A DNA stretch of 64,000 bases, from assembly GCA_019636475.1 (NCBI GenBank), contig JAHBXN010000006.1:186001-250000 (forward strand). The letters are read 5' to 3'. Source of the DNA: Phycisphaerae bacterium (lineage in GTDB: Bacteria; Planctomycetota; Phycisphaerae; UBA1845; UTPLA1). The translations under genes and the position numbers were made by a program. Below the pieces are notes generated by a model. That model searched no databases. It saw nothing but the letters and a program-made list of their open reading frames with translations, and had not been told where the DNA came from. Numbering within the stretch: the first letter of the stretch is position 1; each line of letters opens with the position of its first letter. This document shows positions 16,043 through 18,929 of the stretch, in pieces.

Positions 16043-16522
16043 CTAAGGCGTTTCACTGCTGGGTATTCTTCCGATCTGAAGCGGCACGCCCGCGATGGGG
16101 CTTTTTTCGCAGAAGGGTGTACTGCGGCCGGGTTGTGCCAGGAGTTCACTGATCGTTGTTGCCTGAAATGCGGACTGCACCAGGGCGATCGCTTCGTCGA
16201 GGCGGTGATGGAGCGGGCAGAGATTCAAGCCGTGCGAGGGAATATCGAGCGGGCAAGTCGTGATTCGTTTGATGGGTTCTACGGCGTTTATCACGCTCAA
16301 AACTGACATTTTGTTGGCAGGTATGGCGAGCCGAAAACCGCCCCCGATCCCACGTCTTGATACCACAAGCTCAGCTTTTACAAGTATTTGCAACACTTTC
16401 GGCAGGTAGCCGGGCGGCACTTTCGTCACACCGGCAATCCACTGCGTCGTCGCCACCTGACCTTCGGCCTGGGCGATTGCGACGATGGCGCGCAGGGCGT
16501 ACTCGGCGGTCGGGGAAATCAT
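16043..16522 (-). CDS. Rrf2-family transcriptional regulator, probably nitric-oxide responsive
   Basis: A 159-residue Rrf2 protein: winged helix in residues 1-65 (TAEYALRAIVAIA, then GYLPKVLQILVKAELV and the GIGGGFRLA wing) and a sensor part with C90 (RITTCPLD) and C102 (LNLCPLHHRLDEA). Rrf2 regulators such as NsrR hold a NO-sensitive iron-sulfur cluster through cysteines here. Only two cysteines lie in the usual stretch, with a possible third ligand (H or D) or C137 near the C-terminus (STPFCEKSP). It is transcribed away from norZ, and two identical-type palindromes lie between the genes, so it very likely represses norZ and itself. AGGAGG nine bases before ATG fixes the start. The NO role is inferred from context. 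Confidence 0.88.
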   Translation of the reverse strand: MISPTAEYALRAIVAIAQAEGQVATTQWIAGVTKVPPGYLPKVLQILVKAELVVSRRGIGGGFRLAIPANKMSVLSVINAVEPIKRITTCPLDIPSHGLNLCPLHHRLDEAIALVQSAFQATTISELLAQPGRSTPFCEKSPIAGVPLQIGRIPSSETP

Positions 16523-16546
16523 GCAGGACGGCCTCCTGGTTCGGCT

Positions 16547-16569
16547 AATTGGATCTTGACATCCAAATT
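16547..16569. promoter_or_regulatory. Operator 1, inverted repeat between rrf2-type gene and norZ
   Basis: AATTGGAT (16547-16554), six bases, then ATCCAAAT(T): a palindrome with one mismatch to operator 2. It covers the -10 and probable start of the regulator's own promoter on the minus strand and the TTGACA of the norZ side. The position fits a repressor site that shuts both genes. Binding by the neighbouring Rrf2 protein is inferred. Confidence 0.72.
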
Positions 16570-16583
16570 ATATCGTGTAGTCT
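16556..16583 (+). promoter_or_regulatory. Possible norZ promoter
   Basis: A perfect TTGACA (16556-16561) stands upstream of norZ. The best -10 at 16 bases is TAGTCT (16578-16583), only a partial match, so the promoter may be weak or need an activator. The TTGACA lies inside operator 1, and operator 2 follows just after the expected start point. Confidence 0.4.
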
Positions 16584-16594
16584 TGCGCGGTAAA
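16567..16594 (-). promoter_or_regulatory. Probable promoter of the Rrf2-family regulator
   Basis: Reading the minus strand, TTTACC (16594-16589), 16 bases, then a perfect TATAAT (16572-16567). The implied start is near 16560, giving a leader of about 40 bases before the AGGAGG and ATG at 16522. The -10 overlaps operator 1, which suggests autoregulation. Confidence 0.6.
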
Positions 16595-16614
16595 TTGGAT
16601 ATTTGGATCCAATT
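16593..16614. promoter_or_regulatory. Operator 2, perfect inverted repeat upstream of norZ
   Basis: AATTGGAT (16593-16600), six bases, ATCCAATT (16607-16614): a perfect eight-base palindrome with the same arms and spacing as operator 1, about 46 bases (four to five helical turns) away centre to centre. It lies 23 bases before the norZ ATG. Two same-phase sites suggest cooperative binding of a dimeric regulator. Confidence 0.75.
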
Positions 16615-16637
16615 AATAAATATGGAGGCTGGCTTGA

Positions 16638-18929
16638 ATGAAGAACAAGAAACTCTGGGCGGCGTTTGGATTGGTGATCGGCTGCTCTTTTTCAGTGCTC
16701 GGCTACTACGGATACGAGATTTTTCAGCAAGCGCCTCCGATTCCGAGTCGGGTCGTGACGACGGACGGCGTGGTGATTTTCAGCGGCGAGCAGATTCGTG
16801 ACGGCCAGAATGTGTGGCAGTCGATTGGGGGTCAGGAAGTTGGCACCGTCTGGGGGCACGGGGCTTACGTCGCTCCTGACTGGTCGGCCGACTGGCTGCA
16901 TCGTGAGTGCGAATGGCTGCTTGATTCGTGGGCGAAGGAAGAGGGCGGCCGGACTTACGCGGAGCTGGGGGTGGAGCGGCAAGCCGGGCTGCGTGAGCGA
17001 CTGCGCCGCGAGATTCGCACGAACACCTATGATGCGAAGAACGATGTGATTCGCATTTCTCCCCTTCGTGCGGAGGCGATTCGGTCGGTCGGTCGGCACT
17101 ATACGGGCCTCTTCGGCGACGACGCCTCTCTTGACGGGCTGCGCGACGCTTACGCCATTCCGGTGAACAGCATTAAGACGGCGGAGCGTCGTGAGGCATT
17201 GAACGCGTTCTTTTTCTGGGCCGCCTGGGCATGCGGTACGAATCGGCCAGGCTCGGAGATCACCTATACCAACAACTGGCCGGCGGAGGAGCTGATCGGC
17301 AATCAGCCCACTGGTTCGATCGTGGTCTGGTCCGTCATCAGCTTCGTACTGCTGCTTGCAGGAATTGGCGCGCTGGCCTGGCATTTCGCCGTTGAGCGTT
17401 CCAAGCCGGAGGAGGCGAGGGAGTTTCCCTCGCGGGATCCGCTGCTTGCAATGAAGCCGACGCCATCGATGCGAGCGACGCTGAAGTACTTCTGGGTGGT
17501 TGCCGCGCTGATTGTCGTTCAGGTCGGGCTTGGCGCCGTGACGGCGCACTACGGCGTCGAAGGCGGCGGCTTCTACGGAATCAAGCTGGCGGAGATTCTG
17601 CCATACTCGGTGACTCGAACATGGCACACGCAACTCGGTATTTTCTGGATCGCAACGGCATGGCTGGCCACGGGGCTTTTTGTTGCGCCGGCCGTTTCAG
17701 GCTATGAGCCGAAATTTCAGCGACTGGGCGTCAATGTGCTGTTTGTCTGCCTGCTGGTCATCGTGGTTGGATCGCTGGCGGGGCAGTGGATGGGTGTTCA
17801 GCAGAAGCTTGGGTATGTTGCGAATTTCTGGTTCGGCCATCAGGGTCTGGAGTATGTCGATCTTGGTCGGTTCTGGCAGATTTTTCTGCTCGCCGGCCTG
17901 TTCATCTGGCTGTTCCTGATGGGGCGGGCGATGTGGCCGGCGCTGCGGCGTCCGGGTGAACACCGCGGCCTGTTGTCCATGTTTTTCATTTCGTCCGCGG
18001 CCATTGCGATGTTTTACGGTGCGGGACTGATGTGGGGCCGCCAGACCAATCTGGCCGTCATCGAATACTGGCGATGGTGGGTGGTGCATCTCTGGGTTGA
18101 GGGCTTCTTCGAAGTCTTTGCGACGGTCGTCATCGCATTCCTCTTCACGCGCATGGGCCTGCTGAAGACCGCCACGGCCACGGCAGCGGTGCTTTTCTCG
18201 AGCACCATTTTTCTCAGCGGGGGCATCATCGGGACATTCCATCATCTTTATTTCACGGGGACTCCGACGGCTGTTCTGGCGCTGGGCGCGTGTTTCAGCG
18301 CGCTCGAGGTTGTTCCGCTGGTGCTTATTGGATTTGAGGCCTATGAGAACCTGTCGCTGAGCCGCGCGAAGCCGTGGGTATCCGCTTACAGGTGGCCGAT
18401 CTATTTCTTCGTGGCGGTTGCGTTCTGGAATCTCGTCGGCGCGGGGCTTTTCGGGTTCTTCATCAATCCGCCGATCGCGTTGTATTACATGCAGGGACTC
18501 AACACGACGCCTGTCCACGGCCATACCGCGTTGTTTGGTGTTTATGGAATGCTCGGGATGGGACTGATGCTTTTCTGTCTTCGAGGGCTTGCGACCGAAA
18601 AAGCGTGGAAGACGGGATCCCTGGCGGTTGCATTCTGGTGCGTTAATGCAGGGCTGGCCTTGATGGTTCTGCTGAGTCTGCTCCCCGTGGGATTGATGCA
18701 GGCGTGGGCGAGTGTTGAGCGCGGCATGTGGTATGCCCGCTCCGCCGAGTTCATGCAGACACCACTTATGGAGAAACTGCGATGGATGCGCGTCGTCGGC
18801 GATACCATCTTCGCGGTCGGTATTCTGTCGCTGGGCTGGTTCATCCTCGGGCTGAAGACCGGGTGGTCCATCGAATCGGATCGCAAAGATGTATCATCGG
18901 CCGTTCCCAATCCCGTTGCGGGCGGATGA
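16638..18929 (+). CDS. norZ: Quinol-dependent nitric oxide reductase
   Basis: The 763-residue protein is the single-subunit qNOR: it reduces two NO to N2O with electrons from the quinol pool at the inner membrane. The N-terminal extension with a periplasmic cytochrome-c-like fold lacking haem (about 30-225, beginning with DGVVIFSGEQIRDGQNVW) is typical. The catalytic NorB part carries the ligands: H330 (RTWHTQLG) and H629 for haem b, H627 (PVHGHTALFG) for haem b3, H484, H535 and H536 (GTFHHLYFTG) for non-haem iron, with E488 and E492 in HLWVEGFFEVF. No other denitrification gene is nearby, so NO detoxification is the likely role. GGAGG about nine bases before ATG supports the start. Confidence 0.96.
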   Translation: MKNKKLWAAFGLVIGCSFSVLGYYGYEIFQQAPPIPSRVVTTDGVVIFSGEQIRDGQNVWQSIGGQEVGTVWGHGAYVAPDWSADWLHRECEWLLDSWAKEEGGRTYAELGVERQAGLRERLRREIRTNTYDAKNDVIRISPLRAEAIRSVGRHYTGLFGDDASLDGLRDAYAIPVNSIKTAERREALNAFFFWAAWACGTNRPGSEITYTNNWPAEELIGNQPTGSIVVWSVISFVLLLAGIGALAWHFAVERSKPEEAREFPSRDPLLAMKPTPSMRATLKYFWVVAALIVVQVGLGAVTAHYGVEGGGFYGIKLAEILPYSVTRTWHTQLGIFWIATAWLATGLFVAPAVSGYEPKFQRLGVNVLFVCLLVIVVGSLAGQWMGVQQKLGYVANFWFGHQGLEYVDLGRFWQIFLLAGLFIWLFLMGRAMWPALRRPGEHRGLLSMFFISSAAIAMFYGAGLMWGRQTNLAVIEYWRWWVVHLWVEGFFEVFATVVIAFLFTRMGLLKTATATAAVLFSSTIFLSGGIIGTFHHLYFTGTPTAVLALGACFSALEVVPLVLIGFEAYENLSLSRAKPWVSAYRWPIYFFVAVAFWNLVGAGLFGFFINPPIALYYMQGLNTTPVHGHTALFGVYGMLGMGLMLFCLRGLATEKAWKTGSLAVAFWCVNAGLALMVLLSLLPVGLMQAWASVERGMWYARSAEFMQTPLMEKLRWMRVVGDTIFAVGILSLGWFILGLKTGWSIESDRKDVSSAVPNPVAGG

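What the first reader, a model, noticed from the sequence alone, without database searches (positions are those of the whole stretch)
16523..16637. Two matching palindromes between a divergent Rrf2 regulator and norZ
AATTGGAT-N6-ATCCAATT occurs perfectly at 16593-16614 and with one mismatch at 16547-16569, about 46 bases apart. Site 1 covers the regulator's TATAAT and the TTGACA on the norZ side; site 2 lies between promoter and norZ start. This looks like a compact NO switch whose operator differs from the AT-rich 11-1-11 NsrR sites I know from enterobacteria. The regulator has only C90 and C102 in the cluster region.
Basis: partly seen in the sequence, partly recalled or inferred. Interest (0 to 1): 0.62.

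Follow-up and report, generated by a model that had tools for sequence, protein, structure and literature searches.

The report
Two-operator NO-gene switch before norZ
A short stretch of DNA between a regulator gene and the gene for a nitric-oxide-destroying enzyme carries two matching control sites that are kept across many Planctomycetota genera and even in Deinococcus, pointing to a widespread, apparently undescribed relative of the NsrR nitric-oxide switch with an unusual metal-binding signature.

Summary
AATTGGAT-N6-ATCCAATT is perfect at 16593-16614 and has one mismatch at 16547-16568 (not 16569). They are the only two sites with at most one mismatch in the 4.41-Mb genome. The divergent rrf2-norZ pair recurs across many genera of the order. 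All 29 norZ-paired intergenic regions keep the first site's core (TTGA[CT][AG]TCC), in which the norZ -35 box lies between two half-sites; the second site lies about 46 bp away on the norZ start point. Nine norZ genes without this regulator beside them lack the operator. Elsewhere the regulator class faces other NO or N-oxide genes (Hmp, truncated globin, protoglobin, RIC, Hcp, NosZ, hemerythrin). In Deinococcus radiodurans it faces hmpA with both sites intact. All 66 intact relatives carry C-x6-H-x3/4-C-x2-H instead of NsrR's three cysteines; the closest solved structure is the [2Fe-2S] sensor RsrR. Most likely this is an autoregulated, NsrR-like local repressor of norZ with a variant iron site and its own operator. 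NO sensing, repression and the metal site are inferred, not shown.

The parts
16043..16522 (-). Rrf2-family regulator, 159 aa; E7 (16502-16504), C90 (16253-16255), H97 (16232-16234), C102 (16217-16219), H105 (16208-16210)
   Evidence: Pfam PF02082 E 2.6e-24; nearest solved structures RsrR by sequence and fold; E7/C90/H97/C102/H105 invariant in 42 of 42 relatives
16638..18929 (+). norZ, single-subunit quinol-type nitric oxide reductase, 763 aa
   Evidence: PF22085 NorB cytochrome c-like domain plus PF00115 COX1
16547..16568 (.). Operator site A: AATTGGAT-CTTGAC-ATCCAAAT; contains the norZ -35 box and covers the regulator's -10 and start point
   Evidence: core kept in all 29 norZ-paired intergenics
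16593..16614 (.). Operator site B: AATTGGAT-ATTTGG-ATCCAATT, at about +4 to +25 of norZ, overlapping the regulator's -35 box
   Evidence: block conserved, distance to site A 46-47 bp in 18 of 20 close relatives
16603..16612 (.). Inner palindrome TTGGATCCAA of site B, the best-conserved axis in close relatives (TATTTGG-N2-CCAAATA)
   Evidence: 60% complementary cells on this axis against 40% on the N6 axis, over 20 loci
16556..16561 (+). norZ -35 box TTGACA, inside site A
   Evidence: conserved in alignment
16578..16583 (+). norZ -10 box TAGTCT (N16 from TTGACA)
   Evidence: TAnnnT block conserved
16567..16572 (-). Regulator -10 box TATAAT, overlapping the right flank of site A
16589..16594 (-). 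Regulator -35 box TTTACC (TTGAC in many relatives), overlapping the start of site B
   Evidence: GtcAA block conserved
16624..16628 (+). GGAGG ribosome-binding sequence of norZ
16532..16536 (-). GGAGG ribosome-binding sequence of the regulator (CCTCC on the + strand)

Best explanation
An autoregulated, divergent two-operator switch. A dimer of the Rrf2 protein binds each TTGGAY-N6-RTCCAA site. The two promoters overlap back to back, and each operator covers the start region of one promoter and part of the other: site A covers the norZ -35 box and the regulator's -10/+1, site B covers norZ +4 to +25 and part of the regulator's -35. Occupancy should therefore silence norZ and the regulator together. 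NO (or a close reactive nitrogen species) attacks an iron or Fe-S site held by C90, H97 and C102 of one subunit, with E7 of the other subunit and possibly H105; the protein lets go and NO reductase is made. Shown by comparison: the two operators, their conservation, their tie to this regulator, the class signature and the NO-gene context. Inferred: binding, repression, the NO signal and the metal site.
For: Two unique sites in the genome. Dyad TGGA-N8-TCCA in 17 of 38 distinct intergenics, expected 0.13, largest count for any dyad in 100 shuffles 4. Site A pairs match above column shuffles at several positions. The left half of site A lies outside both promoters' hexamers yet is kept in most relatives. 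Nine norZ genes without an adjacent class regulator lack the composite site (8-12 of 15 matching positions), while two paired examples scored in the same run have 13 and 15. In 32 genomes the fetched composite matches away from the regulator lie inside reading frames. Elsewhere the class faces Hcp, NosZ, ScdA/RIC, hemerythrin, flavohemoglobin and protoglobin genes, with NnrS nearby in one locus. Deinococcus radiodurans: same class divergent from hmpA, site A CTGGAGCTTGACATCCAC and site B AAAGTGGATAAAAAGGTCCACTTT. The fold matches Fe-S Rrf2 sensors, and ScNsrR's D8/R12 pair (PMC5411485) corresponds to E7/R11 here.
Against: No expression, binding or NO data. The middle cysteine of NsrR is absent, so a [4Fe-4S] cluster like NsrR's is not assured. 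Site B differs between clades: N6, an inner N2-type axis, or ACCTGGA-N2-TCCAGGT, so it may be read differently. Site-B covariation was inconclusive. Some relatives (L015-L017, L023, L024, L030) have lost the left half of site A.
Confidence: 0.72

Rival explanations
1. The regulator is a redox or Fe-S-status sensor like RsrR or IscR, and norZ is one output of redox or iron state rather than of NO itself.
For: Closest structure by sequence and by fold is RsrR, whose 107-bp divergent intergenic also holds two full sites (PMC5015018). Two cysteines plus His/Glu is RsrR's ligand type (PMC11138216). In Deinococcus ficus the regulator is followed by a SufS-family cysteine desulfurase gene.
Against: Identified neighbouring targets across two phyla are almost all NO or N-oxide genes. 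RsrR's H12 ligand is an invariant arginine here.
Confidence: 0.2
2. The protein activates norZ or acts both ways, as proposed for Thermus NsrR.
For: Thermus NsrR is reported to activate norC and repress nirS (PMC5748679).
Against: Site A contains the -35 box and site B covers the start region of norZ, positions typical of repression.
Confidence: 0.1
3. Only site A is an operator; site B is mainly promoter or leader sequence and its match to site A in the window is partly fortuitous.
For: In close relatives the N6 register of site B is weakly kept and the inner axis scores better.
Against: The block is conserved 46-47 bp from site A while the spacer between them is not. Distant loci have near-perfect N6 palindromes there (L049, L046, L053, L146 and Deinococcus L180, L183, L184).
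Confidence: 0.15
4. The palindromes belong to another regulator and the adjacent Rrf2 protein does not bind them.
For: No binding data exist.
Against: The operator was seen only next to this regulator class and is missing from norZ genes without it. The Hmp-facing clade of regulators has a changed half-site (TACA-N8-TGTA) in the same frame.
Confidence: 0.05

Closest known systems
NsrR (Streptomyces coelicolor, enterobacteria, Neisseria)
   Same: Rrf2 fold, likely dimer, acidic residue at E7/D8 followed by Arg four residues later, control of NO-detoxification genes, palindromic operator of about 22-23 bp
   Different: Three cluster cysteines (C93, C99, C105) in NsrR; here C90, H97, C102 (+H105). 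Operator TTGGAY-N6-RTCCAA instead of gATGyAT-N5-ATrCATc. Far below the NCBIfam NsrR cut-off (40.7 against 182 bits).
RsrR (Streptomyces venezuelae)
   Same: Nearest solved structure by sequence and fold; two cluster cysteines; Glu near the N terminus; short divergent intergenic with two full operator sites
   Different: RsrR's cluster is held by two Cys plus His12 and Glu8, with 11-3-11 sites, and it controls redox genes; here the H12 position is Arg, two other histidines are invariant, and targets are NO genes.
IscR
   Same: Fold; the histidine three residues after the last cysteine (IscR H107, here H105)
   Different: IscR has three cysteines and controls Fe-S assembly; score far below the IscR cut-offs.
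Thermus thermophilus NsrR
   Same: Rrf2 protein encoded with a ScdA/RIC gene and controlling NO reductase genes
   Different: Three cysteines, operator CTTGACCNNGGTCATGG, dual regulation (PMC5748679).

Membership tests
Rrf2 superfamily | Rrf2 domain with winged helix-turn-helix and long C-terminal helix | tested here: met
   PF02082 E 2.6e-24; Foldseek hits RsrR, CymR, IscR, NsrR
NsrR | Three cluster cysteines C-x5-C-x5-C | tested here: not met
   C-x6-H-x3/4-C-x2-H in 66 of 66 intact relatives
NsrR | Acidic fourth ligand with Arg four residues on (D8/R12 in ScNsrR) | tested here: met
   E7 and R11 in 42 of 42 relatives; ScNsrR residues from PMC5411485
NsrR | NsrR-type operator (gATGyAT-N5-ATrCATc, 11-1-11) | tested here: not met
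   Operator is TTGGAY-N6-RTCCAA
NsrR | Scores above the curated NsrR model cut-off | tested here: not met
   40.7 bits against 182
NsrR | Controls NO-detoxification genes | tested here: inconclusive
   Gene neighbourhood and shared operators only: norZ, Hmp, RIC, Hcp, protoglobin and others; no expression data
NsrR | Fe-S cluster nitrosylation by NO releases DNA | not testable with these tools
   Needs purified protein
RsrR | Ligands C90, C110, E8, H12 | tested here: not met
   E8 and C110 equivalents present (E7, C102); the H12 position is R11
IscR | Three Cys plus His (C92, C98, C104, H107) | tested here: not met
   First and third Cys and the His present, middle Cys absent

The most novel reading that the evidence does not exclude
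A separate class of Rrf2 nitric-oxide sensors, spread over Planctomycetota and Deinococcota, that holds its iron or [2Fe-2S] site with two cysteines and one or two histidines (C-x6-H-x3/4-C-x2-H) plus a glutamate across the dimer, and reads a TTGGAY-N6-RTCCAA operator with the target's -35 box inside it.
Probability: 0.5. Interest if true: 0.66.

Novelty: new variant of a known kind. Interest (0 to 1): 0.55.

Why it matters
NO control by Rrf2 proteins in Planctomycetota and Deinococcus appears undescribed in the papers searched. This gives a defined regulator class, operator and target set for norZ, nosZ, hmp and RIC genes, which bear on NO and N2O release. It also offers a clean test of whether Rrf2 proteins can sense NO with histidines in place of NsrR's middle cysteine, in an organism with ordinary genetics (D. 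radiodurans).

Tried and rejected
Phylum-wide pattern scan outside the order gave seven hits, of which only the own site and L071 (beside a class regulator and hcp) were real; the rest looked like chance. The one-mismatch scan of 32 genomes was swamped by coding-sequence matches. A wider regulon in this genome was rejected: no further sites above chance, and no RIC or Hcp gene is found there. Site-B covariation at either axis gave no excess over column shuffles, because the columns vary too little. A regulator tree was weakly resolved (quick method), though the Hmp-facing and protoglobin-facing groups are each one supported branch. HcpR-type TTGAC-N4-GTCAA was considered and dropped: the TTGAC and GTCAA blocks here lie far apart and fit two promoters' -35 boxes.

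Full report
What is there. Between a leftward Rrf2-family regulator gene (16043-16522, minus strand, 159 aa) and a rightward norZ gene (16638-18929, 763 aa, quinol-type NO reductase by its PF22085 and PF00115 domains) lie 115 bases. They hold AATTGGAT-N6-ATCCAATT perfectly at 16593-16614 (site B) and with one mismatch at 16547-16568 (site A). In the whole 4.41-Mb genome no other place comes within one mismatch. The shorter TTGGAY-N6-RTCCAA has exactly these two perfect matches; its 18 one-mismatch places equal the reversed-pattern control (18), and those fetched lie over reading frames.

Promoters. The norZ promoter is TTGACA 16556-16561, N16, TAGTCT 16578-16583; the regulator promoter on the other strand is TTTACC (16589-16594), N16, TATAAT (16567-16572). 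The -35 of norZ lies inside site A between the half-sites, and the regulator's start region falls in site A. Site B covers about +4 to +25 of norZ and overlaps the regulator's -35. One protein on both sites would be expected to stop both genes; that is inference from position.

Phylogenetic footprint. The regulator gene was found in many relatives. 29 distinct norZ-paired intergenics were collected, most of them 110-135 bp long. All 29 keep TTGA[CT][AG]TCC of site A, and 22 keep TGG or CGG of its left half. The left half lies outside both promoters' hexamers, so promoter conservation cannot explain it. The spacer between the -10 box and site B is not conserved. Over 38 distinct intergenics the dyad TGGA-N8-TCCA occurs in 17 (expected 0.13; the highest count of any dyad in 100 shuffles was 4). 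The distance between the sites is 46-47 bp in 18 of 20 close relatives.

Negative controls. Nine norZ genes in the same order without an adjacent class regulator (six at 58-73% and three at 42-48% identity over the stretch aligned) lack the composite site: 8-12 of 15 positions match, against 13 and 15 in two paired loci scored in the same run. In a scan of 32 genomes the fetched composite matches were either beside this regulator or inside reading frames.

Site B in detail. In protoglobin-facing, NosZ-facing and Deinococcus loci the N6 form is good: GAATTGGAT-AGATAT-ATCCAATTC in L049, GTGGAC-AGATGG-GTCCAT in L146, GTGGAT-AAAAAG-GTCCAC in D. radiodurans. In one norZ/RIC clade it reads ACCTGGA-N2-TCCAGGT. 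The window carries three half-sites that satisfy both axes. So site B is real, but the protein's exact register there is open.

The regulator class. E7, C90, H97, C102 and H105 are invariant in 42 of 42 representative relatives; C-x6-H-x3/4-C-x2-H is found in 66 of 66 intact members. These relatives were picked by similarity, so this shows conservation within the group, not its boundary. NsrR's ligands are C93, C99, C105 and D8 of the other subunit, with R12 as salt-bridge partner (PMC5411485). Here C90 and C102 keep the 12-residue spacing of NsrR's outer cysteines, E7 and R11 correspond to D8 and R12, and a histidine stands one residue past the middle cysteine's place. H105 corresponds to IscR H107. 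A three-cysteine paralogue in the same genome reads C-x6-C-x5-C-x2-H (L062), with its middle cysteine at the position of H97. The nearest solved structure by sequence (E 6.6e-22 for the H33A variant and 1.3e-21 for the wild type) and by fold is RsrR, whose [2Fe-2S] cluster is held by two Cys of one subunit and His plus Glu of the other (PMC11138216); but RsrR's H12 position is R11 here. No curated equivalog fits.

Targets elsewhere. Divergent genes besides norZ: ScdA/RIC, protoglobin, flavohemoglobin, Hcp, NosZ and hemerythrin, with NnrS nearby in one locus. For some members the neighbouring gene was not identified. In Deinococcus radiodurans and D. wulumuqiensis the class faces hmpA; in D. 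ficus and on a second D. wulumuqiensis plasmid it faces group III truncated hemoglobin. Both site A and site B are plain in the hmpA-facing loci. In the Planctomycetota Hmp-facing clade the half-site is TACA/TGTA around the same CCTTGACA, and that clade is one supported branch of the regulator tree. This suggests a common geometry with changed half-site letters.

Mechanism and limits. The best reading is a local, autoregulated NO-responsive repressor of norZ. Shown: unique and conserved operators, their dependence on the adjacent regulator class, and the NO-gene context. Inferred: binding, repression, NO as signal, and the metal site. This genome lacks RIC and Hcp genes by profile search, so norZ may be its main NO defence; globins were not searched.

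Known or new. Rrf2 NO switches are well known (NsrR). No paper found in the open-access library describes this class in Planctomycetota or Deinococcus; most subscription papers are not covered. I rate it a new variant of a known kind.

Noticed in passing
L006:1036-1959 (same protein in L037): The norZ-facing regulator is 308 aa: the class Rrf2 domain followed by a hemerythrin domain (PF01814 E 2.7e-10), a fused DNA-binding protein with a possible second di-iron gas sensor.
   Followed up: partly
L042:3-824 (minus strand); also L019, L026, L047: A cytochrome P450 gene (PF00067 in L042) follows a RIC/ScdA gene that faces the class regulator; whether it handles NO, as fungal P450nor does, is unknown.
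   Followed up: partly
L055, L161-L165 (intergenic upstream of the regulator): Regulators facing flavohemoglobin genes have half-sites TACA/TGTA instead of TGGA/TCCA around the same CCTTGACA core, as if specificity changed while geometry stayed.
   Followed up: partly
L062 (G000:C17:11262-11669): A paralogue in the same genome has C-x6-C-x5-C-x2-H, the three-cysteine counterpart of the class signature; its targets were not identified.
   Followed up: no
L182:4001-4441: On a Deinococcus wulumuqiensis plasmid the class regulator gene reads out of frame after its helix-turn-helix part, near insertion sequences, while the site-A operator before a truncated hemoglobin gene remains.
   Followed up: no
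L184:4001-5700: In Deinococcus ficus the class regulator gene overlaps a SufS-family cysteine desulfurase gene, fitting an Fe-S cofactor.
   Followed up: no
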